A stretch of 26,739 nucleotides of DNA, taken from positions 1 through 26,739 of the IMG/VR virus record IMGVR_UViG_3300021960_000425; one strand, written 5' to 3'. This stretch comes from a virus. Under the pieces are notes generated by a model. It made no database searches. It was not told the DNA's origin and saw only the letters and a program-made list of their open reading frames with translations. Below are positions 4,424-16,774 of this stretch, piece by piece. How positions within the stretch are numbered: the stretch's first letter is position 1; each line of letters starts with the position of its first letter. Position numbers and translations under genes: made by a program.

Positions 4424-4963
4424 TTAGTTTCTATAGCCATCTACTATCTGTTTCCAAAGTTTAGGATTCTTCCTGGCTTCTGTTCTGTCTTTTTCGGACA
4501 AATCAGACCATCTTGCATTTTCAGCAAACTTGCCTGAAGAAGTAACCTCTTTGGCATCAGATATTTGCACTTTTTTATTACCCAATCTTTCAATGTGCTT
4601 TTCCAACTTAATTGTTGGCAGGTCTGCATAGATTTCTTGATCATCATCTGAAAGTTGGGACAGCAGGTGTTCTCGTCTTTGTTTTTCTTGAATCTGAAAT
4701 TGTTCTACTACAGGTTTTAACTGTGAGTTTTCTTCTTTCATCTTCTCATACAAAGATTTAAACTCCTCTTTTTCTTCAAGTCGTTTTGTTTCTTGAAGTT
4801 TGAGGTTTTCTTTGAGTTCATTTAACTCGGCTTCTGCTGCTTGAGCTCTTGTTCGGTACTTCTTGCTTTCTGCAATTAAGCCACCGACTTCTTCATTATT
4901 TATTTCCTGTGTAGGAGCTTCTGCTACTGCTTGTTCTTCTACTATTTTTGTTTCTTCGGACAT
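4424..4963 (-). CDS. Capsid scaffolding protein
   Basis: A 179-aa, highly charged, glutamate-rich protein with no cysteine. Residues about 30-105 are predicted coiled coil with many E/K/L heptads (AQAAEAELNELKENLKLQE and onward). The C-terminus (ARKNPKLWKQIVDGYRN) is basic and aromatic, as expected for the part of a scaffold that contacts coat protein. It sits immediately upstream of the capsid gene, the normal place for a scaffold. The ATG has an AGGAGGGCAGA ribosome site. No protease motif is visible, so it probably acts only as an assembly core that is released. The assignment rests on position, charge and coiled coil. Confidence 0.78.
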   Translation of the reverse strand: MSEETKIVEEQAVAEAPTQEINNEEVGGLIAESKKYRTRAQAAEAELNELKENLKLQETKRLEEKEEFKSLYEKMKEENSQLKPVVEQFQIQEKQRREHLLSQLSDDDQEIYADLPTIKLEKHIERLGNKKVQISDAKEVTSSGKFAENARWSDLSEKDRTEARKNPKLWKQIVDGYRN

Positions 4964-4972
4964 TCTGCCCTC

Positions 4973-5443
4973 CTATTTTATTATCGTTGTTTTGGATACA
5001 TACTTTTTAATATTTCTATCCAAAAGTTCTTTGCTGAATCTCTCGGCTATAAATTCTTTATTCTTATTAGACAAGTCATAGATATCATATCCTCTTTTCT
5101 GATTGCCTAATACTATTTCCCCTTTATCGTAAGTAATGATTGCAGTATCAGTCTTTCCTGATCCTCTCATACCTCTTAGGGTTCTACCAGTTAGTTTCAT
5201 ATTAACAAAAGAAGTTTGAGTATCAGTAGATTGATTAGCATAGGCTTTAAGTTTTTTCCCAGTTCTAACTCCTCGCATACTATTAGCTTTATACTTTCTA
5301 TAAGTATCGCTTTTATAGGAGTATCCACTTCTGTCATTCTGAAACTTGCCTTTACTTGCATCTAAAGTAATTTTATCAATAGCATCTTGTGCTAACTTAG
5401 TCATCACTTTAGAATTAGGTTTAACTACTTGGTCTAATCTCAT
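4973..5443 (-). CDS. Putative virion morphogenesis / tail-completion protein
   Basis: A basic protein of 156 aa between the minor head protein and the scaffold. The segment VNMKLTGRTLRGMRGSG followed by a beta-rich stretch (AIITYDKGEIVLGN), YDIYDLSNK and a C-terminal helix with FSKELLDRNIKKY matches the general pattern of gpG/HK97-gp10-like tail-completion proteins (L-TG-x-L core, then a small beta domain). An upstream TTG at 5455 is in frame, but the ATG at 5443 makes a perfect ATGA overlap with the stop of the MuF gene, so I chose it. Function is inferred; it could also be a head decoration or neck protein. Confidence 0.55.
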   Translation of the reverse strand: MRLDQVVKPNSKVMTKLAQDAIDKITLDASKGKFQNDRSGYSYKSDTYRKYKANSMRGVRTGKKLKAYANQSTDTQTSFVNMKLTGRTLRGMRGSGKTDTAIITYDKGEIVLGNQKRGYDIYDLSNKNKEFIAERFSKELLDRNIKKYVSKTTIIK

Positions 5444-6141
5444 ACTCTTACCCAATCATGTCTGCAGTTGTATCCACCTCTATTAGCAAAGTCTACATAC
5501 CCTAAAGCATCTATTTCTTCTCTTGTTAGTGGTGGTTCTTGTAATGCTCGTTGGCATACTTCTCTTGTCTTGTTATCACTTGTTCCAATGTATTGAAACT
5601 TCACTTCAGGAAACTCCTCAAATGCTTTGGCTCTTGAAGTGTTACTGAATCGTGAAAAAGCATCATTAATCAAGAAAGAAGTTTCACTTGAACTAATATA
5701 AGTTCCTACCCCAAAGGTGCTATTAATGTTATTCATTATCTGAATATTACTTTCTCCAGTTATGATTCCTCTTAGCATAGCAGTCTTTAGTTGATCTGAA
5801 TATTGTCTTACCCCATTGGTCAAATAAGTCATTTCAAAGTTCTTTAACTCTCTTAAAGCATCGATACTTGCTGCAGATACTTGTCCTAACTCTCTTTTAG
5901 ATAGTTCTGCAAATACTCTTGCTATCTCATCATCAAAGGTTTTACCTACTCTATTCATTAGTTTCGTAAATCCTAATGTTTCCATTTCTGCAAAGAAATC
6001 TATCTGCTTAGCAATCTGCATTAGTTCAGTATCGGTTACTCTACCTAACCCTATTACTAGGTTATCCAATTTGTCAATTAACTGTTGTTGGATATTCTCT
6101 ATTTCTTTATTATAGAAATCTAAATTAGCCAACTTGCTCAC
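5440..6141 (-). CDS. MuF-like (SPP1 gp7-type) minor head protein
   Basis: A 233-aa protein directly after the portal gene, the standard place for MuF/gp7 proteins. The C-terminal domain shows the family signature: YIGTSDNKTREVCQ (residues 184-197) and GGYNCRHDW (222-230) with C196, C226, R227 and H228. The N-terminal 150 residues are mostly helical. In SPP1-like phages the product binds the portal inside the capsid and influences DNA ejection. The GTG at 6141 is used here; a TTG at 6132 has a better AGGTGA site and is an equally good candidate, which would remove three residues. The gene overlaps the portal end by 17 nt. Confidence 0.85.
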   Translation of the reverse strand: MSKLANLDFYNKEIENIQQQLIDKLDNLVIGLGRVTDTELMQIAKQIDFFAEMETLGFTKLMNRVGKTFDDEIARVFAELSKRELGQVSAASIDALRELKNFEMTYLTNGVRQYSDQLKTAMLRGIITGESNIQIMNNINSTFGVGTYISSSETSFLINDAFSRFSNTSRAKAFEEFPEVKFQYIGTSDNKTREVCQRALQEPPLTREEIDALGYVDFANRGGYNCRHDWVRV

Positions 6142-7456
6142 CTATTCTATCAATGATAGATTGTGTTTCGTCTGCTTCTTGTGGTTGTTCAGCATCTATC
6201 TGTTCCACAATAGCTTGTATTTCTTCTTCCTTGAAATCAGGATTCTTCTTTCTTAAATAACTTTGTCTTGTTTCTAAATCATTTTGGAATGCCCAAGAAT
6301 AGTATTTGATTTCCTCATCGGTACTCATAGGCACTTCTCTTTCAGCAAAGTCTATACTGAATTGATCCCCAAGATTAATACCACCTGATACTTCACAGAT
6401 TCTTTTAGCAATTCTAAATTGTTCTTTCTCAAATGGTCTATAGATTTGTTCTGTATCTGATCTTAGAGCATCCATTAAATCTAATTCAGACATCTTTTTG
6501 CTTAATCCACTTTCCTGAGATTTATCAGCCCAGTTGATTCTAACATTGTTGGATTGTGCAATACTATCTACCATATACTTGGTGGATTCAATCATTGCCT
6601 GGACATTAGCATTTGGTGTTGCATATTGGAAGTTCGCACCTTCAGGTAATACTAATGCTTTATCTTGTCCCATAGTAATTCGTTGTTCAGTATCTAATCC
6701 AGTAAAGACTGGTTGTCCTAATTGGAATCTTCCATGCAAAGCAAGTTCAGTTAACATAATGTTGATACTTCTCATACCATCTACTAAGTCTGATGCCCCT
6801 TCTCTAAAGAAATCTCTTGTGAATGGATGTCTATGTGCTATGTTAAATGGTAAGACATCTCCATAAGGATTTCTATCCCCTTCTACAATAGAAGTAATAG
6901 CACCTCTACTGCTTATCATAAAGTGTTTCCCTTCCATATCTTCTGTATCTTTTGACCAAAACATATATTGAGCATCTTCTGTTCTACCTTGTAGCTGTGA
7001 TTCTGCTTGATACATAATAGCAAAAGGTTCATCTTCATTAGGTTTAAAGAATGGGGTAAAGAAGTGGATTGGTCTATACTTTAGTTTCTTTGCATTGTCA
7101 TCCCAATGAGTATATAAAGCTTCTGTACCTAATAGATAAGTAAGCTGTTCAAATTGTTTCATTACAGAATCAAAGTTGCCCAAGACATCTGTATATTTTT
7201 CGTTGTATCTTACTGGTTGTTGTTGATATACCAATGCTCTCCTGGATATAATATTTCTAACAAGATTAATGTACATAGGTGGGATTTGTGATAAACTATC
7301 ACTATCAAAATATCCTTTAATGTCATGTTCAAGGTTGATACCCTCGAAATAATCAAGCATTCGTTCTCGTTGGCTATGTTCTTTTTCTAATCCTTCTTCT
7401 ATTGTATCCATTAACAAGTCATACAACATCTTTTCTGTTAAATTATAAATTATCAT
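6125..7456 (-). CDS. Portal protein
   Basis: A 443-aa protein forming the dodecameric channel at the packaging vertex. It follows the terminase block and precedes MuF, and its length fits SPP1-type portals. Recognisable parts are an N-terminal helical region with PPMYINLVRNIISRRALVY, a wing-type beta region (YRPIHFFTPFF, PFAIMYQAES), a central SDLVDGMRSINIMLTELALHGRF stem-like helix (about 230-252), and an acidic C-terminal helix (EEEIQAIVEQIDAEQPQEADE). The ATG at 7456 forms an ATGA overlap with the upstream 57-aa gene and has an AAAGG site. Assignment rests on context and overall pattern. Confidence 0.88.
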   Translation of the reverse strand: MIIYNLTEKMLYDLLMDTIEEGLEKEHSQRERMLDYFEGINLEHDIKGYFDSDSLSQIPPMYINLVRNIISRRALVYQQQPVRYNEKYTDVLGNFDSVMKQFEQLTYLLGTEALYTHWDDNAKKLKYRPIHFFTPFFKPNEDEPFAIMYQAESQLQGRTEDAQYMFWSKDTEDMEGKHFMISSRGAITSIVEGDRNPYGDVLPFNIAHRHPFTRDFFREGASDLVDGMRSINIMLTELALHGRFQLGQPVFTGLDTEQRITMGQDKALVLPEGANFQYATPNANVQAMIESTKYMVDSIAQSNNVRINWADKSQESGLSKKMSELDLMDALRSDTEQIYRPFEKEQFRIAKRICEVSGGINLGDQFSIDFAEREVPMSTDEEIKYYSWAFQNDLETRQSYLRKKNPDFKEEEIQAIVEQIDAEQPQEADETQSIIDRIGEQVG

Positions 7457-7626
7457 GATTCATACCTTTTATAAATTTTTTGTTCTTCGGTTTCCAAGAA
7501 TCTATCCTGAAAATCCTTTATCATTTCTCTACTTAGTTCTTCTTCTTTTATACTTAATCGGTATCCCCATACCATAGCACTTATCATGCTAACAATAATT
7601 CCAACACTCATTCCTAATAAAAACAT
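7453..7626 (-). CDS. 57-aa single-helix membrane protein between terminase and portal
   Basis: A small gene supported by coupling on both sides: its ATG overlaps the large-terminase stop (TAATG) and its TGA overlaps the portal start (ATGA). Residues 2-22 (FLLGMSVGIIVSMISAMVWGY) form one hydrophobic helix. The rest is a charged amphipathic tail rich in E, K and R, ending RYES. The pattern fits a membrane-anchored accessory protein. It could be a small holin-like or spanin-like component, but no lysis gene lies nearby. I do not recognise a family. Confidence 0.75.
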   Translation of the reverse strand: MFLLGMSVGIIVSMISAMVWGYRLSIKEEELSREMIKDFQDRFLETEEQKIYKRYES

Positions 7627-8819
7627 TACCATTCTATTGCCTTAGCTTGTCCTTTGAATCCATATCGGTAATCAACTGGATAACATAAAGCATCTAAGAA
7701 GTGTGATAAGGTTTCAGTCTTTAGTATCTGCCCATTCTCCATAGTACATAGTTCTAAATCTCTAATAGTGTTCTTACACTTAGGATTAATAAATAACCTT
7801 ACTTTCCCAGTTGCATCTTCCAACATCTTATTCAAGGCATTCAATCTGTCCTTTTGAGTAGGATTAGCTTTCTTAGCTATAACTGTAAACCCACTCTCTT
7901 GCAATATTCTATGGTCAGACTTGGTACTATTAGAAGTTCTTGCCTTCCCTGCTGGATCGGGATATACTGGAAGTCCTGGTGCTTTTTGTTGCATTAGCTT
8001 AGCCAATTCAAATGTATTTGAGTTCTGTAATCCAATCTCATCAAATACATAAACTTCCCCTGCAGTATTTTCACACATTAGGATAGCAGTCATATATGAT
8101 GCTACCCCAAAGTCGATTCCCCAAAACATTCTTGGAGATTTATCCATTACTTTACAATGAATATCTCTATTAAAATTATATGCTGCTCTATTTGCAGCAG
8201 TAAGAAAACTTGCAAGATATTCTTGTTCAAAAGTTCTCTTATCTAAATTCTTTTTGGCATTCTCTACTTCTGATTCAGAAATAAAGCCACCTTCTAATGT
8301 GGTAAACTGCCAGGACTTATAATCACTATTCTTAGATTGTCCTTTAACAAATAGATCATAAAAGTGGTTCTGTACTCCAGTTGGAGTTCCTACAAATAAA
8401 GCCGAACCTTTAGTTTCTGCTAAAGTCGGCTGTATAATCTCTCCCCACACATTCTCTTTCATATAACTGTACTCATCAAGCACTACCATTGTTGTAGATA
8501 CTCCTCTAAGTGAGTCAGGTTTGTCTGCCCCTTTAAGTTCAACTTTTGCACCATTATCAAGTGTAATAGATAATTCAGTTTCATTGATACTGACTTCTTT
8601 ATGTGCAAAGATGTCCTTGAGTATTGACCAAGATACCATTTTAGCTTGTCTATATGTTGGAAAAACAATCCACCTTCTCTCGTTAGCTTTAAAAGGCTTA
8701 GACAATAAAAATAAAATAGAGAAGTAAGACTTCCCCCACCTTCTACCACAGGATAAGATTTTGTATCGTGTATCGTCTTTAAGGATTGATTTCCTTGTGG
8801 CATCAATCGTCCAGTCCAT
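7626..8819 (-). CDS. terL: Terminase large subunit
   Basis: A 397-aa packaging motor with ATPase and nuclease domains. Walker A is CGRRWGKS (24-31), Walker B MVVLDE (111-116) and the coupling motif GTPTG (144-148). The RNase H-like nuclease follows: WGIDFG with D236, D288 in YPDPAG, and D376 in LSHFLDALCY, giving three acidic residues for metal binding. It cuts concatemeric DNA and pumps it through the portal. The length is slightly short for the family but all motifs are present. It overlaps the upstream DUF5681 gene by 17 nt and is coupled to the 57-aa gene downstream. Confidence 0.97.
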   Translation of the reverse strand: MDWTIDATRKSILKDDTRYKILSCGRRWGKSYFSILFLLSKPFKANERRWIVFPTYRQAKMVSWSILKDIFAHKEVSINETELSITLDNGAKVELKGADKPDSLRGVSTTMVVLDEYSYMKENVWGEIIQPTLAETKGSALFVGTPTGVQNHFYDLFVKGQSKNSDYKSWQFTTLEGGFISESEVENAKKNLDKRTFEQEYLASFLTAANRAAYNFNRDIHCKVMDKSPRMFWGIDFGVASYMTAILMCENTAGEVYVFDEIGLQNSNTFELAKLMQQKAPGLPVYPDPAGKARTSNSTKSDHRILQESGFTVIAKKANPTQKDRLNALNKMLEDATGKVRLFINPKCKNTIRDLELCTMENGQILKTETLSHFLDALCYPVDYRYGFKGQAKAIEW

Positions 8820-9171
8820 CTATATCAAATACCTTAATTGGTTCATCTGAAACATCTTTGATCCCTATGCTTTGACTTGGTTTACCCAAGATTCTATCTG
8901 CTAAAAAGTTAATGGCAGTCATATTACCATCTAATGCTTCTTCATATACTTTACCTACAACAGCTTCTAACATAGTCTTTTTGTCTTCTAATTCTACATT
9001 AGCAAGATCGGTGATATATTCATTTAAGGCAAAACCAGATTTAGGTCGCCCATTAGGATTACCTGATTGTCCTTTTTTCCAACCCTTGCCAGTTATTCCA
9101 CCAACAAGTTTTTCGTTGTTTTTTGGTTGTTTTACAACCTTTGTTGTTTTAGCTGCAGCCAAACTAATCAC
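8803..9171 (-). CDS. DUF5681-type protein, likely small terminase subunit
   Basis: A 122-aa protein with the motif GWKKGQSGNPNGRPKSGF at about residues 30-47, the signature of the DUF5681 family commonly found beside phage large terminases. Downstream is a helical region (about 48-95) and an acidic C-terminal tail (EPIKVFDIDGLDD). The basic motif plus helices suit recognition of packaging DNA and handing it to TerL. The start is uncertain: the GTG at 9171 has a weak site, whereas a TTG at 9162 lies 5 nt after GGGGTGA. The small-terminase role is inferred from position. Confidence 0.75.
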   Translation of the reverse strand: MISLAAAKTTKVVKQPKNNEKLVGGITGKGWKKGQSGNPNGRPKSGFALNEYITDLANVELEDKKTMLEAVVGKVYEEALDGNMTAINFLADRILGKPSQSIGIKDVSDEPIKVFDIDGLDD

Positions 9172-9193
9172 CCCACTATTTGAAGGTTATGTG

Positions 9194-9229
9194 TTCGTTA
9201 TTAAAACGAAAGGGAAGGTGTTACCCTTC
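9194..9229 (-). other. Tandem hairpins in the leader of the packaging genes
   Basis: Two adjacent perfect inverted repeats lie in the 174-nt gap upstream of the small terminase: TTCGTT/AACGAA (9194-9199/9205-9210, loop 5) and GAAGG/CCTTC (9214-9218/9225-9229, loop 6). In the minus transcript the second stem is followed by a pyrimidine-rich CCTTTCGTTTT stretch, so weak termination of the early transcript is possible. The gap also has TATATAG at about 9233-9239 and a repeated TTGTAGTC, which could mark a late promoter, but no good sigma70 -35 is in register. No gene is visible in the gap. Confidence 0.4.
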
Positions 9230-9345
9230 TACTATATAGGGAAAAAGACTACAAGAAACCCTTATCTAAGAGTTCTAAATGCTTGTAAGTGTTGATATTG
9301 TTGATAAAGATAATTTATTTAGGACTACAAAAAACTCCTCGATTG

Positions 9346-10002
9346 TCAAGAAAATAAGGAAATTATTTTTTTAGGCAATTTATCGACGAAGTTTGATATA
9401 ATCATATCTTCAGGTAGGTCATCTATTATGTATTTATAGCCATACTTCTTTATGGTATCGGTACTAAAGTCGTCTATTAGTCTATATGTACCTAATTCTA
9501 TTTGATGTGGCTCAAAGACTACTATCTGCCTATGTGGAATATTGAATTGGATCAGGAAACTATTTCTGTGGGTTAGCTTTTTAGCTTTATGTTCTTTGAT
9601 GTGGAAATAAGGCATATCAGCAAATAAGGATTGTACTTCTATCTTTATGGTTTTGTTTCTATAGGTTACTTTGAAGTCAGGTGCTGCAGTTATTTCCCTT
9701 CTCATGACTCTTATTATTCTATCTTGATCATGGTTATCAAAGGTCGCAGTTAGTTCTTTATATGGTGGCAAAGAGAATAGATAAGTAAATACATCCTCTA
9801 CTAACCAACCTCTGCATATATCCATAAAGTGTTGTTCAGGTGTTCTATTGTCTTGGATATGTGCCATTTCTTTATCCAGTTTATTATTAATGGTCTTTAG
9901 TTGCTCTTTATAGGTGTAATACTTGTTATGTAGGTAATGTTGATAATCTGTACTATGAGATAGTTCTTTAAGTTGATTATATGCTGTATCTAACTTATTC
10001 AT
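9346..10002 (-). CDS. PD-(D/E)XK-type nuclease, restriction-endonuclease-like
   Basis: A 218-aa protein. After a helical N-terminal part it has AAPDFKVTYRNKTIKIEVQS (106-125). Here P108-D109, then E122-x-Q124 after one beta hairpin, fits the PD-(D/E)xK fold with K replaced by Q, a known variation in restriction enzymes. Following segments (NSFLIQFN, RQIVVFEP) look like the remaining core strands. It is the last gene of the methylase-HTH-Mom cassette, and its ATG overlaps the Mom stop (TAATG). It could cut unmodified host or rival DNA, or act in recombination. The nuclease fold is likely; the restriction role is inferred from neighbours. Confidence 0.6.
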   Translation of the reverse strand: MNKLDTAYNQLKELSHSTDYQHYLHNKYYTYKEQLKTINNKLDKEMAHIQDNRTPEQHFMDICRGWLVEDVFTYLFSLPPYKELTATFDNHDQDRIIRVMRREITAAPDFKVTYRNKTIKIEVQSLFADMPYFHIKEHKAKKLTHRNSFLIQFNIPHRQIVVFEPHQIELGTYRLIDDFSTDTIKKYGYKYIIDDLPEDMIISNFVDKLPKKIISLFS

Positions 10003-10712
10003 TAGTCAAATAGTTGTGTTTGTGTACTCGGTTTATATGAAGCATCATATCTTTCGTTATTTCCTTTTGGGTAAGGTTTTATGCTATAAACCAATCTTTC
10101 TTTCATTTCTTTTTTCTGTTTTTTATTTCCCAATAAATAGAAATACCTGTGTTTTCTTGCCCTATCAACCATATAAACATTTTTTTCTCCAAATTTTTGT
10201 TTTAATAATTTTACTTTATCAAGGTGTCCATTTTTATCGCTTCTCCCCACCATATCTAAAACAGATGCACCATGAAGATGTTCATATCCTTTTACCATAT
10301 AATCTTTAAATTTTGCACTTAATCCAGTATATAGCCAATTAGTTGCCTGATAGATATATCCATGATGGTTTTGAGATGTGTCAGAATAAGATACTATTAC
10401 TTTAGGTTTTTTTAATAGTTTTAAGGATTGTGAAACAAAAAAAGACAGAACATTTTTATCTAAATTTTCATTAATTACAAGTCTGTTTAATTCTAAAAAA
10501 TTATCTTGATAATGCCCTGAAAATGCTTTTTTAACTAATATGTGTGCAACAGGTCTGCCAAAAGAACAAACACCTACTAATTCTTTGCTTTTAAATAATC
10601 CAAAAGAATAAGACACAGATGTCATTCTTTTTGCATAATGTTTATACATAAACCATTCTTTACATTGTTCTTTTTTAATATGGTTCACTTTATATTTATC
10701 TTTAATACTCAT
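10002..10712 (-). CDS. Mom-like adenine hypermodification protein
   Basis: A 236-aa protein resembling the Mom family, GNAT-fold enzymes that in phage Mu turn adenine into N6-(carbamoylmethyl)adenine and so block many restriction enzymes. Matching pattern: an N-terminal YKHYAKRM segment, GVCSFGRPVA (47-56), FLELNRLVI (72-80), SFFVSQSLKLLKKP (90-103), and the strongly conserved-looking VSYSDTSQNHHGYIYQATNW (107-126) followed by LYTGLS. The C-terminal third is basic (RARKHRY, KKQKKEMKERL) and may bind DNA. Its ATG forms an ATGA overlap with the HTH gene. I identify the family from memory of its motifs, not by search. Confidence 0.7.
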   Translation of the reverse strand: MSIKDKYKVNHIKKEQCKEWFMYKHYAKRMTSVSYSFGLFKSKELVGVCSFGRPVAHILVKKAFSGHYQDNFLELNRLVINENLDKNVLSFFVSQSLKLLKKPKVIVSYSDTSQNHHGYIYQATNWLYTGLSAKFKDYMVKGYEHLHGASVLDMVGRSDKNGHLDKVKLLKQKFGEKNVYMVDRARKHRYFYLLGNKKQKKEMKERLVYSIKPYPKGNNERYDASYKPSTQTQLFD

Positions 10713-11011
10713 TTTCTACGAAGCTTATATTTTACCAAAGTGGCTTCTTTCGATAGCTTTTTTATGGCTCGATTATAATAGGTCTTTGCTGAACTTTCTG
10801 ATATTCTCATGTTATAAGCTATATCATCAAATTTCTTTTTTTCTAATGCTCGTTCAATAAAGCATTGATATTCTTGGTCTGATAATGACCTTCCCCCTTG
10901 TATACCAGTAAGAACATATTTTAGTTCTTTTAATATCTTTGCTTGTTCTTTTTCTACCTCGTCTATTAGGTCTTGGTAGCCTTTTGCTTGATTGTCTATT
11001 GAGTTTTTCAA
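10709..11011 (-). CDS. Small HTH protein, sigma region-4-like
   Basis: A 100-aa protein with a coiled N-terminal half (DLIDEVEKEQAKILKELKYVL) and a C-terminal helix-turn-helix at about 57-90: ALEKKKFDDIAYNMRISESSAKTYYNRAIKKL, with the tempo of sigma-factor region 4 or LuxR-type HTH. The C-terminus is basic. The TTG start at 11011 overlaps the methylase stop (TTTTGA) and has an AAGGA site 8 nt upstream; no ATG lies near the N-terminus. Sitting between methylase and Mom genes, it may regulate the cassette or help late transcription. Mu mom is tightly controlled, so a dedicated regulator would make sense, but this is inference. Confidence 0.65.
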   Translation of the reverse strand: MKNSIDNQAKGYQDLIDEVEKEQAKILKELKYVLTGIQGGRSLSDQEYQCFIERALEKKKFDDIAYNMRISESSAKTYYNRAIKKLSKEATLVKYKLRRK

Positions 11012-12186
11012 AATAGTGTTCCTTGTATTTTAACTCCTTTTAGTCTTGCTTCTGCTATATCACAGTATTCTTGTTCTCTTTCTATACCTATATAATTGAA
11101 TCCTTGTTGCTTACAAGCAATTAATGTTGTTCCTGATCCTGCAAAAGGTTCTAATACTATGCCTTCTTTAGGTGTTACTAATCTTACTAAATATTCCATT
11201 AGTTTGATTGGTTTTACTGTTGGGTGGTAGTTTTTTCTATTTATTACTCTATTTAAACCTATATCATGGCTATGATCTAATGTTGATCTATGTTTTGCTC
11301 TATTGGACATTCCCATAGGTTTTTCCTCATAATCATCTAACCCCATATTTCGTTCTGCTTTACTTGCTTTGGCACAATAAAAGAATCTACTGCTTTCTTC
11401 AAATACTTCTAATACTTCTTCACTTCCATCGTGGATTATGTTTGCAGGGAATCTTCCTTGTGTGTTAATACTTTGTGTTGTATCTATTGGATTTTTTAGC
11501 TCACCACCTACATATTGTGTTTGATGACCACCTCCTGTATTTGCAAATGATTTTCTTTTTTCTATTGCTTTATCTAAATCATCTTCATTTCTATATCCTA
11601 TTCTACACTCATCTATGTTTATTCCACCTGTGCCATGTGTTAAGACATTTTCTGCTACTGATGTGTTAAATGGTTTTCTTGCCATTACAATAGGTTCGTG
11701 TGCAGGTTTTAGTGCAGTTCCCCAACCTTCCCATTGTGAATTGCCTTTGGTATCTTGTAAATCTAATCTATCAGAATTTAACATATAACCATCTTTGCCT
11801 TTTTTATTTTGATAATTTTTTTTAATTCCAATAACTTCCCTTTTATTCCCTTGCAATTTATCTACTGCTTTTCCAATATTATGTGATTTAGGAAAGCCAC
11901 TACCATACAACCACCCTAACATATCTCTTATTTCAAATCCAGCATCTTCTATATTGACTGCCATTCTGTGGTATGTTCTTGAACCTGCAAAAGATAAGAT
12001 ATGCCCACCTGGTTTTAGGACACGATATACTTCTTTCCATAATTCTACTTGGGGAACATCATAATCCCACGACTTTGACATGAATGAAATTCCATAGGGT
12101 GGGTCTGTTACTACACTATCAAAGTAATTATCTTCAAAGTCTTTTAAGACTTCTAAGCTATCTCCACATAATATTTTATTTTTCAT
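11008..12186 (-). CDS. DNA methyltransferase (beta-class amino MTase, N6-A or N4-C)
   Basis: A 392-aa SAM-dependent DNA methyltransferase. Catalytic motif IV DPPYG is at 28-32 and the SAM-binding motif I FAGSGTT at 348-354, so the motif order (IV first, I last) is that of the beta class. Further marks are LKPGGHILSF (motif V-VI region), NYHPTVKPIKLMEYLVRL before motif I, and a long central target-recognition region. The frame extends upstream to an ATG at 12330, but that would add 48 residues unlike any methylase N-terminus. The ATG at 12186 starts right at the motif block (MKNKILCGDSLEVL) and makes an ATGA overlap with a 38-codon frame, so I chose it. It heads the Mom/nuclease cassette. Confidence 0.9.
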   Translation of the reverse strand: MKNKILCGDSLEVLKDFEDNYFDSVVTDPPYGISFMSKSWDYDVPQVELWKEVYRVLKPGGHILSFAGSRTYHRMAVNIEDAGFEIRDMLGWLYGSGFPKSHNIGKAVDKLQGNKREVIGIKKNYQNKKGKDGYMLNSDRLDLQDTKGNSQWEGWGTALKPAHEPIVMARKPFNTSVAENVLTHGTGGINIDECRIGYRNEDDLDKAIEKRKSFANTGGGHQTQYVGGELKNPIDTTQSINTQGRFPANIIHDGSEEVLEVFEESSRFFYCAKASKAERNMGLDDYEEKPMGMSNRAKHRSTLDHSHDIGLNRVINRKNYHPTVKPIKLMEYLVRLVTPKEGIVLEPFAGSGTTLIACKQQGFNYIGIEREQEYCDIAEARLKGVKIQGTLF

Positions 12187-12299
12187 AATTTTTTTGGGAT
12201 ATGTCGCCAGACCAATAAGAATCGAAAGCATATATTTGACCAAGGGTAGACAGGATTGGTTACCTGCGACACTCCTTTTAAATGCCAATACATGTTCAT
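12183..12299 (-). CDS. Possible 38-aa peptide ahead of the methylase
   Basis: An ATG at 12299 opens a 38-codon frame rich in aromatic residues (MNMYWHLKG, NPVYPWSN, FRFLLVWRHIPKKL). It ends in a TGA that overlaps the methylase ATG (ATGA), the linkage used throughout this genome. The ribosome site (GGGAT) is weak. The competing reading is an N-terminal extension of the methylase in another frame, and the same DNA folds into a long hairpin, so the stretch may be mainly RNA. I recognise no family. Confidence 0.35.
   Translation of the reverse strand: MNMYWHLKGVSQVTNPVYPWSNICFRFLLVWRHIPKKL
12202..12271 (-). ncRNA. Candidate structured RNA element upstream of the methylase
   Basis: A 70-nt stretch that is GC-richer (about 45%) than its surroundings and folds in the minus transcript. 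The outer stem is TGTCGC (12271-12266) with GCGACA (12207-12202), followed by ACCAAT (12260-12255) with ATTGGT (12216-12211), and CAG/CTG can pair between them. This gives about 12-14 bp around a 38-nt loop. The loop contains CTTGGT, which can compete for the ACCAA strand, so two folds are possible. It sits just before the methylase start, where it could control expression of the modification cassette. No known riboswitch class is recognised. Both strands fold equally, so the strand is inferred from transcription. Confidence 0.4.
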
Positions 12300-12304
12300 T
12301 ATCT

Positions 12305-12511
12305 TTATCCCAAATCCTTGTTGTAGCCATGTTCTTTGGCTGTTTTTATTATATCTTTTACTGGTATGTATTTATTGTACTTAAAGCAATACAATTCCAT
12401 TGTGTCTTGTAAGTCCGATGAAACTCTCCCTGAAGATTCTACATATTGAATTTCATAGATATCATTTACTTTACAATATATTAATATGGAATTTAGTTCT
12501 TTGGTATCCAT
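12305..12511 (-). CDS. Hypothetical 68-aa protein
   Basis: Unrecognised small protein with an alternating hydrophobic/polar N-terminal half (LNSILIYCKVNDIYEIQYVESSG), an ELYCFKYNKYIPVKDIIKTAKEHGY C-terminal half and two cysteines. Its ATG overlaps the stop of the initiator-domain gene (TAATG), so the pair is co-translated. The compact mixed alpha/beta look suggests a small globular partner, perhaps of the replication protein. No function can be assigned. Confidence 0.6.
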   Translation of the reverse strand: MDTKELNSILIYCKVNDIYEIQYVESSGRVSSDLQDTMELYCFKYNKYIPVKDIIKTAKEHGYNKDLG

Positions 12512-12870
12512 TAGAACTCTCCCTCTAATTCTTCAAAATGATCATGTAACCCTTTATCAAATATTCTTTCTATGATTCGTTTATGGACTGGTGCTGTCAT
12601 TTTTAGCTTTCCATATTGAAATCGTATAAAGCTTTTTAATAGATATTGTGAATCATCAATAGGAATCATTTGTAGCTTTTCTTTAATGATGTCAGGTATT
12701 TCTCCTTCATATCCATTGCATTCAAAGGTCAATCTTTCAGGATCATACTCCCAAAAGCCATCGTGGCTGCAGTTGGATATAATATATAGCCATAATACTT
12801 TTTGTTGTGCCGACAGCTTTCTGAACCATTGCTTACTAAAGATATCAGCATCTAAAAATCTTTTTCTCAT
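12511..12870 (-). CDS. Replication-initiator N-terminal (winged-helix) domain protein
   Basis: A 119-aa protein beginning RKRFLDADIFSKQWFRKLSAQQKVLWLYI, then NCSHDGFWEYDPERLTF and FIRFQYGKLKMTAPVHKRIIE. This is the familiar N-terminal domain of phage replication-initiator/DnaD-like proteins, which recruits host replication proteins to the origin. Family members usually continue with a charged linker and a second domain; this one stops right after the first domain (HDHFEELEGEF). It is coupled to the nuclease gene upstream (ATGA), whose last codons encode its ribosome site. It is either a naturally single-domain version or a truncated initiator; a fossil of a similar linker lies at 16540-16727. 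Confidence 0.65.
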   Translation of the reverse strand: MRKRFLDADIFSKQWFRKLSAQQKVLWLYIISNCSHDGFWEYDPERLTFECNGYEGEIPDIIKEKLQMIPIDDSQYLLKSFIRFQYGKLKMTAPVHKRIIERIFDKGLHDHFEELEGEF

Positions 12871-13511
12871 CTTTTATTCTCCTGTATTTTTAGTAATAAC
12901 TTAAAAACTTTCCAACCCCAGTTCAAGTCTTTAATCTTTAAATGCTCTACTTGATACTCTTTTTTTTCTTTGTCTATTCGTACAATTAAAGCACCTTTGA
13001 TTTTTTCGCCTGTATTTTCTTCATACATTTTTGCATAAGCAGATATTTGTATTTTATGTTCTGAATGTATAGAATTACTACTTTTCCAGTCTAAGATCAT
13101 AAGCTTGGTGTTTTTACCAATCTTTACTTTGGCTACTGCATCACAAGTTCCACCAAACTTATATTTTTCTGAAACCATTTGTAATTCACTATGCAAGATT
13201 TCAGGCTGATAGTCGTTTTTAAAATCCAAATAGTTGTAATATGCTTGTTTAGCTTGACTAATTTCTGTTGGTGAATAGGTATCTAAATTTTGCACTCTAC
13301 CACCAATAGTAAACTGTTCTATCATATTATGTGCTAAAGTCCCTGTTCTACCTGCAGACCTTAATTCTTCTTTTGGATCTACTCCTTGTTTTAGTAATTT
13401 TAAATTCCAATTTAACAATGGATAAAAGTTCCACCCAAGATTGTTGCCTATGATTGTGGTAACCGAACTAACTCTTTTACCTTCCTTTGTTTTATATATT
13501 GTATGTGCCAT
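12867..13511 (-). CDS. RecB/Cas4-family PD-(D/E)XK exonuclease
   Basis: A 214-aa nuclease for phage recombination or replication. Motifs appear in the family order: GTLAHNMIE with H61, ELQMVSEKYKFGGTCD with D124, the catalytic LDWKSS with D141 and K143, then the RecB-type QISAYAKMY (Q155-x3-Y159). It lacks an obvious four-cysteine iron-sulfur set, so it resembles the phage RecB-like exonuclease rather than classical Cas4. It starts with the stereotyped AAAAGGAGAATAAAATG site. Together with the SSB at 15374-16000 it would resect DNA ends for annealing. No annealing protein is visible in the window. Confidence 0.85.
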   Translation of the reverse strand: MAHTIYKTKEGKRVSSVTTIIGNNLGWNFYPLLNWNLKLLKQGVDPKEELRSAGRTGTLAHNMIEQFTIGGRVQNLDTYSPTEISQAKQAYYNYLDFKNDYQPEILHSELQMVSEKYKFGGTCDAVAKVKIGKNTKLMILDWKSSNSIHSEHKIQISAYAKMYEENTGEKIKGALIVRIDKEKKEYQVEHLKIKDLNWGWKVFKLLLKIQENKR

Positions 13512-13523
13512 TTTATTCTCCTT

Positions 13524-14270
13524 TTATTGCATTGAATATTTCAATGCTTTATTATATGTACTTATTAATTTACTTTTATTCTTTTTAACATGATAAAATT
13601 GTTGTTCAATATATTCAATATATTCAGGTATGCTATAATCATGTTTACTTTTATTACAATGCCTACAAGCCATTCCAAGATTATTTACATGTCTTGACCC
13701 ACCACTAATTGTTGGAATAATATGTTCTATTTCCCATGTACTTGTTTTTAATGGATTTATCTTTTTTGAACAAAGATAACAGCAAGTTCCAAGATGCTTG
13801 AATAAATTATCATCAGACATTCCAACTATATCAAACTTTCTTTGTATTTTCCTTTTAAATTTATACATAGGAGTTTGCTGTCTTTTTCTTGTGGCTTTAA
13901 TTTGTTTTTTTCTTGTCTTTTCATTTAAAGCATAAGCAAGTGTCGATTTACCAATTCTTGGATAATACCATTTCATAAATTTAATAATATAATTATAAGG
14001 CAATCCCAATTCATTTAACAATTTAATTCTATTTTTTTTCTGTTTAATAAAATTAAAATTAGTTAAATCCTTTTTTGCTATTTTCTTTTTGAAGCCTTGA
14101 TCAAATTTAGCATAGTTATTTTCCCAATATGAAGGTTTAAAGAATAGCGATATATCCCTTTGTTCTAATACATAATAGTTTGTGTAAACTTCTTTTGAGT
14201 ATTGAGGATATGTTCTGTGCAAATATTGCTTAGACAATTCTCTCGTGTTTGATGTAAGTATTTCAATCAT
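13524..14270 (-). CDS. HNH endonuclease
   Basis: A 248-aa lysine-rich protein with a C-terminal HNH domain: zinc CYLC (164-167), EIEHIIP (180-186) giving the catalytic His, GG at 190-191, NNLGMACRHCNKSK (196-209) with the Asn and second zinc pair. The N-terminal 150 residues are basic and helical (KKKIAKKDL, KTRKKQIKATRKRQQ) and probably bind DNA. It may be a free-standing homing endonuclease or a packaging/recombination nuclease. Its ATG is preceded by a duplicated ribosome-site motif (14271-14291), a possible insertion scar. Because the small genes on either side are tightly coupled among themselves, a mobile origin is plausible. Confidence 0.85.
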   Translation of the reverse strand: MIEILTSNTRELSKQYLHRTYPQYSKEVYTNYYVLEQRDISLFFKPSYWENNYAKFDQGFKKKIAKKDLTNFNFIKQKKNRIKLLNELGLPYNYIIKFMKWYYPRIGKSTLAYALNEKTRKKQIKATRKRQQTPMYKFKRKIQRKFDIVGMSDDNLFKHLGTCCYLCSKKINPLKTSTWEIEHIIPTISGGSRHVNNLGMACRHCNKSKHDYSIPEYIEYIEQQFYHVKKNKSKLISTYNKALKYSMQ

Positions 14271-14291
14271 TTTATTCTCCCTTTATTCTCC
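14271..14291 (-). repeat. Tandem copy of the early-gene ribosome-site motif
   Basis: The minus strand reads GGAGAATAAAGGGAGAATAAA just before the HNH ATG: two copies of GGAGAATAAA one base apart. Single copies of the same motif precede the starts at 12870, 13511, 14751, 16482 and, on the plus strand, 16775. The duplication may be a footprint of gene insertion by recombination at these short repeated leaders. Confidence 0.7.
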
Positions 14292-14301
14292 TGATTATTA
14301 A

Positions 14302-14391
14302 TTAATCTAATTTGTGTATTTCTTTGTATACTTTTGGAAACAATTTATAACAACCATAAAGCACACCTATAGTAACTATTGTGTCTATCAT
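14302..14391 (-). CDS. 29-aa peptide with a short hydrophobic N-terminus
   Basis: A microprotein supported by an ATGA overlap with the 78-aa gene and an AGGAG site 8 nt upstream. It begins MIDTIVTIGVLYGCYKLF, one short membrane-type segment, and ends basic (KVYKEIHKLD). It may be a small membrane peptide. No family is recognised. Confidence 0.5.
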   Translation of the reverse strand: MIDTIVTIGVLYGCYKLFPKVYKEIHKLD

Positions 14392-14624
14392 TTACTTCTC
14401 TCCTTTATCATGTAATCTTCTATCCAAGGTCTTTGTTTAAAAGCAGCTACTTTCTCATAAGAGTCAAATACCCACCAAGCACGACCATGTTCTTTTGCAA
14501 AATCTTCTCTTAACTGTATTCCTTCTTCACTCCAAGCATCAGGTATGTTTGCCTTTTTGCAACGATCTTGTATTGTTCCCATGTGCTTACCAAACACATC
14601 ATAAGTAGGGTGAGATTTAGCCAT
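14388..14624 (-). CDS. Hypothetical 78-aa early protein
   Basis: Unrecognised. The sequence has an HPTYDVFGKHMG segment near the N-terminus, DRCKKANIPDAWSEEGIQL in the middle and WWVFDSYEKVAAFKQRPW near the C-terminus, with many aromatic residues, so it is probably globular and mixed alpha/beta. It overlaps the 44-aa zinc-ribbon gene by 8 nt and the 29-aa gene by 4 nt. It belongs to the early operon, perhaps as a host-takeover protein; that is only inferred from position. Confidence 0.65.
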   Translation of the reverse strand: MAKSHPTYDVFGKHMGTIQDRCKKANIPDAWSEEGIQLREDFAKEHGRAWWVFDSYEKVAAFKQRPWIEDYMIKERSK

Positions 14625-14751
14625 TCTTACCTGCTTTTTTTGCTTCTTCGTCTTTTTTATTCCAACATTTTATACAATATCCACCTTCGTCATTGTTTAT
14701 TAAAGTGTTGCATTTTTTTGTTAAGCAATATATTATTCTGTAACAACTCAT
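14617..14751 (-). CDS. 44-aa zinc-ribbon-like microprotein
   Basis: A small gene with a perfect AAAAGGAGAATAAAATG start. Cysteines at 3, 9, 14, 26 and 29 (including CIKC at 26-29) could bind one zinc ion, and the C-terminus is a charged helix (NKKDEEAKKAGKNG). It overlaps the 78-aa gene by 8 nt. Small zinc ribbons of this kind in phages often bind nucleic acid or RNA polymerase, but no function can be read here. Confidence 0.7.
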   Translation of the reverse strand: MSCYRIIYCLTKKCNTLINNDEGGYCIKCWNKKDEEAKKAGKNG

Positions 14752-14770
14752 TTTATTCTCCTTTTTTTTC

Positions 14771-15187
14771 CTAATCTAAATAGTCGTAAAAATCTTCTGA
14801 CTTTTTAAGATTTAAGTTATCTAACATTAATTGTACTTCTTTTCTAAATTCTTTTGATAATAAGTGTTTCTTTTGTCCTGACTTTAATGCAGTATTTCTT
14901 CTTTTCTGTAAAGCATCAAATCTTTCTTGTCCTAATTTATTCAATATAAATTCTCTATGTTCTTGTGGATTACCACCTAAGTATGAATGGCATCCATAGC
15001 ATAATGCCTGACAATTATCTTCATCAAATCTTACACTCCATGATCCTCTACTCCAGAAGTGTGAACAATGTAAAGCAGAAGTAGGTGGTGCATATTTCTT
15101 ATCACATCTTTGACAAGTCCAATTATCTCTTGTTCTAATGTATTTACTCCATATAGAGTCGCTTGGAAATATTTTTAATTTTGGCAT
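14771..15187 (-). CDS. NinG/Rap-like HNH protein
   Basis: A 138-aa protein of the lambda NinG type, a family linked to recombination and Holliday-junction cutting (Rap). It shows RTRDNWTCQRCDKKY (C25, C28), ALHCSHFWSRGSWSVRFDEDN (C41, H43) and CYGCHSYLGGNPQEH (C63, C66, H67), the zinc-bound HNH-like core, followed by a basic helical tail. The frame extends upstream to 15235, but the ATG at 15187 has an AAAGGAAAC site and begins right before the conserved part. Its ribosome site lies within a small hairpin, so translation may be controlled. It neighbours SSB and exonuclease genes, which fits a recombination set. Confidence 0.85.
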   Translation of the reverse strand: MPKLKIFPSDSIWSKYIRTRDNWTCQRCDKKYAPPTSALHCSHFWSRGSWSVRFDEDNCQALCYGCHSYLGGNPQEHREFILNKLGQERFDALQKRRNTALKSGQKKHLLSKEFRKEVQLMLDNLNLKKSEDFYDYLD

Positions 15188-15194
15188 ATTGTTT

Positions 15195-15270
15195 CCTTTC
15201 AGGAGAAAGGGACAGCTACTATTCGATTTGATCATGTTAATTAAACAAAGGAATAAGAAGTAGCTGCCCC
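15195..15270 (-). promoter_or_regulatory. Two overlapping hairpins in the NinG leader
   Basis: In the minus transcript GGGGCAGCTACT (15270-15259) pairs with AGTAGCTGTCCC (15220-15209) over 12 bp including one G-U pair, with a 38-nt loop. Next comes CCTTTC-TCCT-GAAAGG (15210-15195), a perfect 6-bp hairpin that buries the GAAAGGA ribosome site of the NinG gene. The two stems share two bases (15209-15210), so they can compete. This looks like translational control or attenuation. Confidence 0.5.
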
Positions 15271-15275
15271 AGTTT

Positions 15276-15374
15276 CTACACTATAATTAACCCCACAAAC
15301 ATAATTCCAAATAATGCAACTATCAACCAAACAATGACTAATAAGAGCATTATTACTGTATTTTCGTTACTCAT
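15276..15374 (-). CDS. 32-aa single-helix membrane peptide
   Basis: A microprotein whose ATG overlaps the SSB stop (TAATG). After MSNENT it is almost wholly hydrophobic (VIMLLLVIVWLIVALFGIMF and on to GLIIV), a single membrane-spanning helix with the short N-terminus probably outside. Its role is unknown; small phage membrane peptides can block superinfection or disturb the membrane. Coding support is the coupling and the clean hydrophobic pattern. Confidence 0.6.
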   Translation of the reverse strand: MSNENTVIMLLLVIVWLIVALFGIMFVGLIIV

Positions 15375-16000
15375 TAGAATGGTAGGTCGTCATCATTTAT
15401 TTGTACCGACTCTTGAGCAACTGGTTCATTAGGTTTACTTGCTTGTGGTATCGCTTTAGGATTTTCACAAGCTTCTACCCAAGCTTCAACTCGTTTAAAG
15501 TTGTTTACAAACTCGTCAGTAGTCCATACCATATCATTAGCAATATACAATTTAACTACATTGTTAAAAATCATACCCATTCTTGCACCATTGGTGTAAG
15601 TGGTATTCGTAGTTTCTACTGCTTGTTTTACTGCTTTGTCTGCTTGTAGTTTTTGGTCAAACTCATTGATGCTTTTCTTTACATTCTCAAATACTGGATT
15701 AGCAGATTCTTTACTAACTGGTTCTGCTTTCCAATAGTTTCTAAGCTGTCCTTCATCAGTAGTGAATTGTTCCCAACTTAATAAGAAATCACTTCCTTGA
15801 GGTATTGCATCTAACTTTCTTTTTAAAGCATCAGTAGCATCTAAGGTGCTGATTGTGCCATCTTGGATCACTTCGTATTTAAAGGTATTAAACTTCTTAC
15901 CTTGCCATTCTTTTTCTTCGTAGACACCTGCCGAGTTTAAAGTCAATCTCAACTGACCACCTACATTTGCTTTTAGGTCTTTTAAATTTACAAAAGCCAT
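15374..16000 (-). CDS. ssb: Single-stranded DNA-binding protein
   Basis: A 208-aa protein whose last residues NDDDLPF form the acidic tip that SSB proteins use to dock replication and repair partners. The first 110 residues are beta-rich (GGQLRLTLNSAGVYEEKEW, KYEVIQDG, FLLSWEQF, LRNYWKAEP), consistent with an OB fold. A helical part and a flexible proline/glutamine linker (PQASKPNEPVAQESVQ) precede the tip. It protects single-stranded DNA during replication and recombination. The start has an AAGGAGAAATAAT site. The fold is inferred, the tip is seen directly. Confidence 0.82.
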   Translation of the reverse strand: MAFVNLKDLKANVGGQLRLTLNSAGVYEEKEWQGKKFNTFKYEVIQDGTISTLDATDALKRKLDAIPQGSDFLLSWEQFTTDEGQLRNYWKAEPVSKESANPVFENVKKSINEFDQKLQADKAVKQAVETTNTTYTNGARMGMIFNNVVKLYIANDMVWTTDEFVNNFKRVEAWVEACENPKAIPQASKPNEPVAQESVQINDDDLPF

Positions 16001-16011
16001 ATTATTTCTCC

Positions 16012-16242
16012 TTATTCTATTTCATCAACAGCTGTACTCATAGAAGGATTTAATCTCACTTCTTCTGATGGCTTACTAGCCAATACTTCTGTATCTTTGT
16101 TTTTCTTAATTTCTGCATCTTTACGAATTTGTCGTAGTTCATGCCTTAACTTGTTTTCATCATCATTGTCAATTCGATTTCTTTCCATTACTTCAATTAA
16201 CAATTCTAATTCTTTAAAATTAAATTTAATTACTGTATCCAT
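16012..16242 (-). CDS. Hypothetical 76-aa early protein
   Basis: A charged protein: a helical N-terminal part (KFNFKELELLIEVMERNR), a basic coiled segment (ENKLRHELRQIRKDAEIKKNKD) and a disordered acidic tail (STAVDEIE). It has no recognisable domain. The ATG at 16242 has a GGTGG site encoded inside the upstream 28-aa frame, so the two are coupled. It lies just upstream of the SSB gene and may work with it. Confidence 0.6.
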   Translation of the reverse strand: MDTVIKFNFKELELLIEVMERNRIDNDDENKLRHELRQIRKDAEIKKNKDTEVLASKPSEEVRLNPSMSTAVDEIE

Positions 16243-16316
16243 TCTTGTACCACCTTTTTAAACATTTCCCAAAAAAATATTATGAATATTGTGTATGCGA
16301 TTATTTCTACTATCAT
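16230..16316 (-). CDS. 28-aa membrane-type peptide
   Basis: Strong AAAAGGAGAAAAAAATG start. Residues 2-16 (IVEIIAYTIFIIFFW) are hydrophobic and the end is basic/polar (EMFKKVVQEWIQ). It overlaps the end of the zinc-ribbon gene by 59 nt in another frame and the next start by 13 nt. Such deep overlap lowers confidence, but the ribosome site is better than that of many longer genes here. Confidence 0.5.
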   Translation of the reverse strand: MIVEIIAYTIFIIFFWEMFKKVVQEWIQ

Positions 16317-16482
16317 TTTTTTCTCCTTTTTTTGAATCTACTAATTCTTCACAAAGAAAACAATCTTGAACATGAATAGCAGGGGAATCTCCAAACTCTT
16401 GATTGCCACATCTATCACAAATGATTTCAGGTTCATAGATCTGATTGCTGTTTTCTTTTTGTATGTATTTTAAGTAAGTCAA
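16258..16482 (-). CDS. Zinc-ribbon protein, first gene of the early operon
   Basis: A 74-aa protein with CDRCG (C22, C25) and CFLCE (C41, C44), a clear four-cysteine zinc site 19 residues apart. The N-terminus is helical and basic (TYLKYIQKENSN), the C-terminal 25 residues are low-complexity (KKGEKNDSRNNRIHNIHN). It starts with TTG after AAAGGAGAATAAA, and lies directly downstream of a consensus-like sigma70 promoter, so it is probably the first phage protein made from this operon. Early zinc ribbons often act on transcription, but that is inference. Confidence 0.7.
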   Translation of the reverse strand: MTYLKYIQKENSNQIYEPEIICDRCGNQEFGDSPAIHVQDCFLCEELVDSKKGEKNDSRNNRIHNIHNIFLGNV

Positions 16483-16512
16483 TTTATTCTCCTTTATCTA
16501 ACTAACTCTACA

Positions 16513-16541
16513 AGAATATTGATTAATATTGAACTTGTCAA
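16513..16541 (-). promoter_or_regulatory. Early leftward sigma70 promoter
   Basis: TTGACA (16541-16536), a 17-nt spacer and TATTCT (16518-16513) on the minus strand, followed by about 30 nt to the ribosome site of the zinc-ribbon gene at 16482. The -35 is perfect and the spacing ideal, so host RNA polymerase should read the early genes immediately. Confidence 0.85.
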
Positions 16542-16632
16542 TGTTTATTTTCAACCTTCTTTTTCCAATTCTTTTAATTCTTCCTATTCTTTAGCTTTAT
16601 ATTAATCTTTGTCTTTTTCTTTTTCTTGTAGG

Positions 16633-16655: not shown

Positions 16656-16660
16656 CCTGT

Positions 16661-16681: not shown

Positions 16682-16713
16682 AAACACCCTTAAAAAAATA
16701 ATTACGAATATTA

Positions 16714-16742: not shown

Positions 16743-16774
16743 TATATATGTTAGTTAAACAAAAGGAGAATAAA

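What the first reader, a model, noticed from the sequence alone, without database searches (positions are those of the whole stretch)
9346..12186. Coupled methylase, HTH, Mom-like and PD-(D/E)XK nuclease cassette
Four genes are joined by stop/start overlaps (TTTTGA, ATGA, TAATG). A beta-class DNA methyltransferase with DPPYG and FAGSGTT is followed by a sigma-region-4-like HTH protein. Next is a Mom-like hypermodification protein (VSYSDTSQNHHGYIYQATNW core), then a nuclease with PD-x(n)-ExQ. Mom in Mu is known to modify adenine and block restriction. A linked nuclease suggests the phage not only shields its DNA but can attack unmodified DNA of the host or rivals, a compact modification-restriction system.
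Basis: partly seen in the sequence, partly recalled or inferred. Interest (0 to 1): 0.82.

Follow-up and report, generated by a model that had tools for sequence, protein, structure and literature searches.

The report
Site-purged phage with restriction-like nuclease
A family of phages carries an unrecognised restriction-like DNA-cutting protein, and phages that have it have wiped one short DNA word from their genomes, as if they stay safe from their own cutter by having nothing to cut instead of by chemically marking their DNA.

Summary
The four genes are real: methyltransferase, sigma-region-4-like HTH, Mom, and an unannotated PD-(D/E)XK-fold nuclease. They are not one coupled modification-restriction cassette. 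In 34 nuclease-bearing records Mom occurs in 5, a PF01555 methyltransferase in 18, PF00145 in 12. The HTH-nuclease interval is a swap slot: Mom, methyltransferase-like genes, HNH, others, or nothing. A near-complete 29.9-kb relative keeps the nuclease with no modification gene found.

The unexpected result: the degenerate palindrome VCGB (a CG not preceded by T on either strand) occurs once in 439 kb of 34 nuclease-positive contigs, against 991 times in 274 kb of 26 nuclease-negative relatives. On a terminase+portal tree at least 7 changes of nuclease state are forced, and the 7 independent pairs agree (p=0.016, motif chosen on the same data). My best reading: a restriction-type endonuclease of VCGB-like specificity without a cognate methyltransferase, to which the phage is immune because its genome is purged of sites. 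Cleavage and specificity are inferred, not shown. Main rivals: host restriction causing the avoidance, or a junction resolvase.

The parts
9346..10002 (-). PD-(D/E)XK-fold nuclease, 218 aa, unnamed family; candidate VCGB-specific endonuclease
   Evidence: Invariant G65xxxE69 / P108D109 / E122xQ124; AF2 pLDDT 76.6, pTM 0.72; VIA-align Z 9.1 to Hjc, 8.4 to I-Ssp6803I, 6.2-7.2 to DpnI, NhoI, MspI; distant homologue beside an MTase on a Thermus plasmid
10002..10712 (-). Mom family DNA modification protein, 236 aa, occupying the swap slot
   Evidence: PF25680 138.8 bits vs cut-off 27.1; PDB 8bv8 E=4e-10
10709..11011 (-). Sigma-70 region-4-like HTH protein, 100 aa; a likely late-gene regulator (inference)
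   Evidence: PF08281 E=3.5e-6 over cut-off; phrog_36 transcriptional regulator; present in relatives with and without the nuclease
11008..12186 (-). N6/N4-type DNA methyltransferase with variable middle part (ORF open to 12330)
   Evidence: PF01555 E=2.8e-36; 32% identical over its first part to the MTase beside the nuclease homologue in Thermus, E=5e-28 for this single comparison
1..26739 (.). Whole window: free of VCGB (0 of 208 CG dinucleotides)
   Evidence: synonymous codon shuffle of 21,150 bp of its CDSs gives 100.6 on average (min 83 in 300) against 0 observed
8803..9171 (-). DUF5681 protein, TerS-like position next to TerL, downstream neighbour of the nuclease
   Evidence: PF18932 E=1.7e-14
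7626..8819 (-). Terminase large subunit, used for the trees and for finding nuclease-negative relatives
   Evidence: PF03237/PF17289

Best explanation
The 218-aa protein is a PD-(D/E)XK endonuclease of restriction-enzyme type that recognises VCGB (or a narrower part of it, at least ACGC and ACGT) and works without a cognate methyltransferase. The phage is immune because selection has removed the sites from its genome. Foreign DNA in the cell (the host chromosome, or co-infecting phages that still carry sites) would be cut. Mom and the exchangeable methyltransferases are a separate layer, shielding the phage from host restriction. Shown here: predicted fold, conserved catalytic residues, no constant tie to Mom or to one MTase, near-complete site absence tied to presence of the gene. 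Inferred: catalysis, specificity, targets, timing.
For: Fold and catalytic motif. The one distant homologue found, on Thermus plasmid pTCCB09, overlaps the end of a PF01555 MTase gene that is itself homologous to the window's MTase, an R-M-like arrangement. VCGB: 1 in 439,323 bp of 34 nuclease-positive contigs (33 with none) against 991 in 274,252 bp of 26 nuclease-negative relatives; about 705 expected by a Markov model in a 407,823-bp positive set (my sum of six words); 0 against 100.6 by codon shuffle in the window. Scan of 3-6-mers (8 or more occurrences) against 11 close nuclease-negative contigs: the 11 words that are zero in nuclease-positive phages all contain a VCGB word, next word at ratio 0.18. 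TCGB and VCGA are not depleted. 8 changes of nuclease state on the TerL+portal tree, 7 forced by starred branches; of 7 independent pairs 6.8 on average go the same way and none the other, median p=0.016.
Against: No activity is shown. The motif was found in the same data on which the tree test was run, so its p is not corrected for the search. Against the 11 nearest relatives the contrast is carried by ACGC (0 vs 42) and ACGT (0 vs 10); CCGG, GCGC and also GGCC, which is outside VCGB, are nearly absent in both groups, so part of VCGB may be host-driven. 3 of 26 nuclease-negative contigs also have no site (all under 6 kb), and L134, distant by TerL, has only 1 in 12.6 kb; one nuclease-positive contig has one CCGG near its end. 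24 of 34 nuclease records do carry at least one of the two MTase families (my union), so freedom from MTases rests on few long records, chiefly G013. Foldseek's best PDB matches are Holliday junction resolvases.
Confidence: 0.55

Rival explanations
1. Host restriction drives it: hosts of the nuclease-positive phages carry R-M systems cutting VCGB words, and the nuclease gene merely marks phages of those hosts.
For: Many other sites are strongly avoided: GGCC, CTAG, GAATTC, CACTG in nuclease-positive contigs and in close negatives, so host restriction seems strong in this lineage.
Against: Those other sites are about as scarce or scarcer in close nuclease-negative relatives, VCGB is not; the independent switches agree; a host enzyme's range would have to track the gene even between sister contigs (L107 vs c14).
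Confidence: 0.22
2. The protein is a Holliday junction or branched-DNA resolvase serving replication and packaging, with no role in restriction.
For: Best structural matches are Hjc and, a little lower, RecU; the gene lies beside the terminase genes.
Against: It is accessory, absent from close relatives; the window already encodes a NinG/Rap-type junction nuclease and an endonuclease VII-like HNH protein by profile; a resolvase would not explain the missing VCGB. I-Ssp6803I and several restriction enzymes also match.
Confidence: 0.14
3. One reading: Mom modification protects the phage from the linked nuclease (compact modification-restriction system).
For: Mom and nuclease genes overlap in the window, L002, L003, L023 and L025.
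Against: Mom in 5 of 34 nuclease records; interval empty in 12 of 31 contigs where it is visible (my tally); Mom without nuclease in L128 and L055.
Confidence: 0.04
4. Free-standing homing-type endonuclease that spreads itself or neighbouring swap-slot genes.
For: Fold match to I-Ssp6803I, Z 8.4; patchy distribution; variable genes on both sides.
Against: In the intervals looked at it stands between genes, not inside one; homing enzymes have long rare sites (established knowledge) and would not force loss of a 4-bp word across the genome.
Confidence: 0.05

Closest known systems
Type II restriction-modification systems (PD-(D/E)XK endonuclease plus methyltransferase)
   Same: PD-(D/E)XK fold; near-total absence of one short palindromic site suggests short-site specificity; distant homologue sits beside an MTase on a Thermus plasmid. 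ExQ in place of ExK is also found in BglII (recalled, no call).
   Different: No constant cognate MTase: PF01555 in 18 and PF00145 in 12 of 34 nuclease records, at least one of them in 24 (my union), and a near-complete genome with none found. Self-protection seems to be by absence of sites.
Chlorovirus virion restriction endonucleases (passages of PMC7253447)
   Same: Virus-encoded restriction endonucleases; per that paper they are packaged and help degrade host DNA.
   Different: [quoted passage not shown] here the genome lacks the sites. Whether this nuclease is packaged is unknown.
Mom (phage Mu; Pfam PF25680, PDB 8bv8)
   Same: The 236-aa protein is a clear member by profile and by similarity to the solved Mom.
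   Different: No sign that it forms a unit with the nuclease; the modification was not testable.
Archaeal Hjc and RecU Holliday junction resolvases
   Same: Closest folds (Hjc Z 9.1; RecU-type 8.2).
   Different: Accessory gene tied to a sequence-motif purge; other junction nucleases are already in the window.
Restriction-site avoidance by prokaryotic viruses (PMC6286503)
   Same: Loss of short palindromes from a phage genome; also seen here for GGCC, CTAG, GAATTC.
   Different: By the start of its abstract that work concerns host R-M systems (listing; a word search in it found none of my six terms; not read further); here near-total absence of one motif tracks a phage-encoded nuclease.

Membership tests
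PD-(D/E)XK nuclease superfamily | Core fold alpha-beta-beta-beta-alpha-beta | tested here: met
   AF2 with 18 sequences: pLDDT 76.6, pTM 0.72, five models 33.9-76.6; Foldseek E 2.8e-4, prob 1.00, TMq 0.40 to Hjc; VIA Z 9.1, rmsd 2.8, 118 aligned (the tool warns that Z under 8 may mean only a common arrangement). A first model on a less diverse alignment was poor, pLDDT 50.7.
PD-(D/E)XK nuclease superfamily | Conserved acidic triad PD...(D/E)xK or variant | tested here: met
   P108-D109, E122-x-Q124 and E69 invariant in 18 phage sequences and the Thermus homologue; variant ExQ
PD-(D/E)XK nuclease superfamily | DNA cleavage | not testable with these tools
   needs biochemistry
Type II restriction-modification system | Cognate methyltransferase accompanying the endonuclease | tested here: not met
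   No MTase type is constant: PF01555 in 18/34, PF00145 in 12/34, either in 24/34 nuclease records; 7 of the 10 with neither are under 10 kb; of the long ones G009 has Mom, G018 an unassigned 200-aa slot gene, G013 none: 20 of its 42 listed ORFs (one cut) scanned with Pfam without an MTase
Type II restriction-modification system | Short specific recognition site | tested here: inconclusive
   indirect only: VCGB purge linked to the gene
Mom family (PF25680) | Profile match over curated cut-off and similarity to solved Mom | tested here: met
   138.8 vs 27.1 bits; 8bv8 E=4e-10
Mom family (PF25680) | Adenine modification of phage DNA | not testable with these tools
   needs nucleoside mass spectrometry
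   Mom in 5 of 34 nuclease records; both single states exist
Holliday junction resolvase (Hjc/RecU) | Fold similarity | tested here: met
   Z 9.1 Hjc, 8.2 RecU-type; shared by other PD-(D/E)XK groups, so not decisive
Holliday junction resolvase (Hjc/RecU) | Sequence membership | tested here: inconclusive
   no Pfam, PHROGs or PDB sequence hit for the protein
Holliday junction resolvase (Hjc/RecU) | Four-way junction cleavage | not testable with these tools
   needs biochemistry

The most novel reading that the evidence does not exclude
Restriction without modification: a phage carries a frequent-cutting (4-bp, degenerate) restriction-type endonuclease as a weapon against host DNA and rival phages and is immune only because its own genome has been purged of sites; sibling phages that lack the gene regain sites and so become vulnerable.
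Probability: 0.5. Interest if true: 0.88.

Novelty: new variant of a known kind. Interest (0 to 1): 0.74.

Why it matters
Textbook restriction needs a modification partner. If confirmed, this would be a self/non-self system in which self is defined by the absence of a word from the whole genome, with a cost that can be read off in codon choice. It predicts an enzyme specificity from comparative genomics alone, gives a testable inter-phage exclusion mechanism, and offers a way to find such enzymes: look for accessory phage genes whose presence coincides with near-zero counts of a motif.

Tried and rejected
Mom-nuclease coupling: rejected by distribution. MTase-nuclease R-M unit in the phage: rejected as a general rule because no MTase type is constant, although both have homologues side by side on a Thermus plasmid and 24 of 34 nuclease records carry one MTase family or the other. 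Does Mom or an MTase relieve avoidance of other sites? In one search the largest differences were GATC and CTAG, in both directions depending on the gene and on few, related contigs; for Mom the largest was AGCTC (0.81 vs 0.33 of expected), small for the number of words tested. I drew nothing from it. Searches for the nuclease found nothing in phage records at E 0.01, by peptide patterns in genome contigs or in PDB sequences that makes sense; one plasmid record, whose protein found only itself; a relative as query against phages at E<=10 gave one hit, E=3. Further viral scans gave no nuclease record that searches had not. First AlphaFold model too poor. The TerL-only tree gave only 3 starred independent pairs, p 0.25, before the longer TerL+portal tree. 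Literature: searches listed no paper that I recognised as a phage nuclease protected by site-free DNA; I saw listings, passages of PMC7253447 and PMC12707154, and an empty word search of PMC6286503. Host not identified.
Full report
Observation. The four reverse-strand genes exist at the given coordinates with the stated overlaps. Methyltransferase, HTH and Mom are confirmed by Pfam and PHROGs and, for Mom, by similarity to the solved structure 8bv8. The fourth protein is in none of four family libraries. With a more diverse alignment of 18 sequences its predicted structure (pLDDT 76.6, pTM 0.72; the five models ranged from 33.9 to 76.6) shows the PD-(D/E)XK core order and matches Hjc (Z 9.1), I-Ssp6803I (8.4) and RecU (8.2) and, lower, DpnI, NhoI and MspI (the tool warns that Z under 8 can be a common arrangement). 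Its P108-D109 and E122-x-Q124 are invariant, also in the one distant homologue found, on Thermus plasmid pTCCB09 (tblastn E=1e-3; profile E=1.3e-9 within that record; alignment). There it overlaps the end of a convergent DNA methyltransferase gene that is homologous to the window's methyltransferase.

The cassette is not a unit. The scans gave contigs with nuclease relatives of 64-100% identity. Where the HTH-nuclease interval is visible (31 of 35 contigs, window and its twin L002 included) it holds Mom in 5, a 314-aa C5 methyltransferase in 4, a 209-aa C5-like protein in 3, a 122/123-aa unknown in 3, HNH-like proteins in 2 (one of them scanned), a 200-aa and a 169-aa protein in one each, and nothing in 12 (my tally; families). 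Over whole records Mom is in 5 of 34, PF01555 in 18 of 34 and PF00145 in 12 of 34; 24 of 34 have at least one of the two MTase families, and many records are fragments, so absences are soft. Of the 10 with neither, 7 are under 10 kb; the three long ones are G009 (Mom, outside the slot), G018 (a 200-aa slot gene without Pfam hit) and G013. G013 is the hardest case: 30,030 bases whose ends overlap by 151 bp at 99.3%, a 91% identical nuclease, no match to the three families, and no methyltransferase among 20 of its 42 listed ORFs scanned with Pfam. Nuclease-negative relatives with TerL up to 94.7% identical keep the same neighbourhood, one with Mom and no nuclease (L128); a profile search of 48 nuclease-negative or undetermined records found none.

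The motif. Counting short words in the nuclease-positive contigs showed strong avoidance of many palindromes. Comparing with nuclease-negative relatives separated two kinds. GGCC, CTAG, GAATTC and CACTG are scarce also in close negatives, as expected from host restriction. ACGT, ACGC, ACGG, CCGC and GCGC, which with CCGG make up VCGB, are at zero in the positives while present in the negatives taken together. Per contig: 34 nuclease-positive contigs, 439,323 bp, 3,713 CG, one VCGB (a CCGG 59 bases from the end of L005); 26 nuclease-negative contigs, 274,252 bp, 3,449 CG, 991 VCGB, with zero in three, all under 6 kb. In 33 other loci brought in by Mom, 1,509 of 3,485 CG are VCGB and none has zero. 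In the window's coding sequences the observed number is 0; shuffling synonymous codons within genes gives a mean of 100.6 and never under 83 in 300 trials. A scan of 3-6-mers with 8 or more occurrences against the 11 closest nuclease-negative contigs ranks VCGB-containing words first, 11 of them at zero, and then falls to a ratio of 0.18; TCGB and VCGA are as common in both groups. That close-relative contrast (1 in 452 kb against 58 in 131 kb) rests mainly on ACGC (0 to 42) and ACGT (0 to 10), so the true site may be narrower than VCGB.

Relatedness. On a TerL tree the nuclease state changes 8 times, 3 forced by well-supported branches, too few pairs for a test. On a TerL+portal tree of 43 contigs there are 8 changes, 7 forced, and of 7 independent pairs 6.8 on average have the nuclease-positive member site-free and the other not, none the reverse (median sign-test p=0.016). 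The motif was chosen on the same data. Examples are L107 (negative, 4 sites in 13 kb) beside c14 (positive, 0 in 5 kb), and L115 (negative, 3 in 12 kb) beside c71 (positive, 0 in 25 kb). Site density in nuclease-negative phages runs from under 0.2 per kb in L096/L098 to about 8-13 per kb in distant ones, as if sites return after loss of the gene; L134/L135, distant but with 1 and 0 sites, do not fit that trend. 52 of 58 sites of close negatives have an aligned homologue in positives; the commonest aligned replacement is ACGC to ATGC.

Mechanism. I propose a site-specific endonuclease that attacks VCGB-bearing DNA, with self-immunity by purging. Steps shown: predicted fold, conserved residues, accessory status, no constant tie to Mom or one MTase, gene-linked site absence. 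Steps inferred: that it cuts, that VCGB is its site, that the host or rival phages are the targets. The host-restriction rival cannot be excluded without biochemistry or host genomes. The resolvase rival fits the fold but not the motif, and the window has NinG/Rap-type and endonuclease VII-like HNH genes already. Mom and the exchangeable methyltransferases most likely answer host restriction; one search gave no clear relief of avoidance by them.

Novelty. Virus-encoded restriction enzymes are known with methyltransferases (chloroviruses, passages of PMC7253447), and phage site avoidance is known for host enzymes (PMC6286503, start of abstract in the listing). In nine literature searches that ran (named under Tried and rejected) I recognised no account of a phage restriction-type nuclease whose own genome is site-free. 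The library holds only open-licence papers and I saw mostly listings, so this is weak evidence of absence.

Noticed in passing
whole lineage: Very strong avoidance of GGCC, CTAG, CCGG, GCGC, GAATTC, CACTG/CAGTG and other sites in nuclease-positive and close nuclease-negative phages, suggesting hosts with many R-M systems.
   Followed up: partly
window 11008-12186 and relatives: The methyltransferase has near-constant ends and a middle part that varies in sequence and length between relatives (ORFs of 306-533 aa), like exchange of target-recognition regions.
   Followed up: no
window 12867-13511: Second PD-(D/E)XK protein (PDDEXK_1/Cas4-like, E=9e-7) just upstream.
   Followed up: no
window 13524-14270 and 14771-15235: Endonuclease VII-like HNH protein and NinG/Rap-type junction nuclease.
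   Followed up: partly
L022 1086-1748, L024, L025: Nuclease looks mosaic: L022 has a window-like N-terminal half and the divergent C-terminal half of L024/L025, yet VCGB stays at zero.
   Followed up: partly
interval nuclease-TerS (window 9172-9345) in relatives: A second variable slot of small unknown ORFs, many beginning with a similar VLIKLKEIKM-like start.
   Followed up: no
L072 (Thermus plasmid pTCCB09): Nuclease homologue WP_014271885.1 ('hypothetical protein') overlapping the end of MTase gene WP_014271884.1, a possible undescribed R-M pair.
   Followed up: partly
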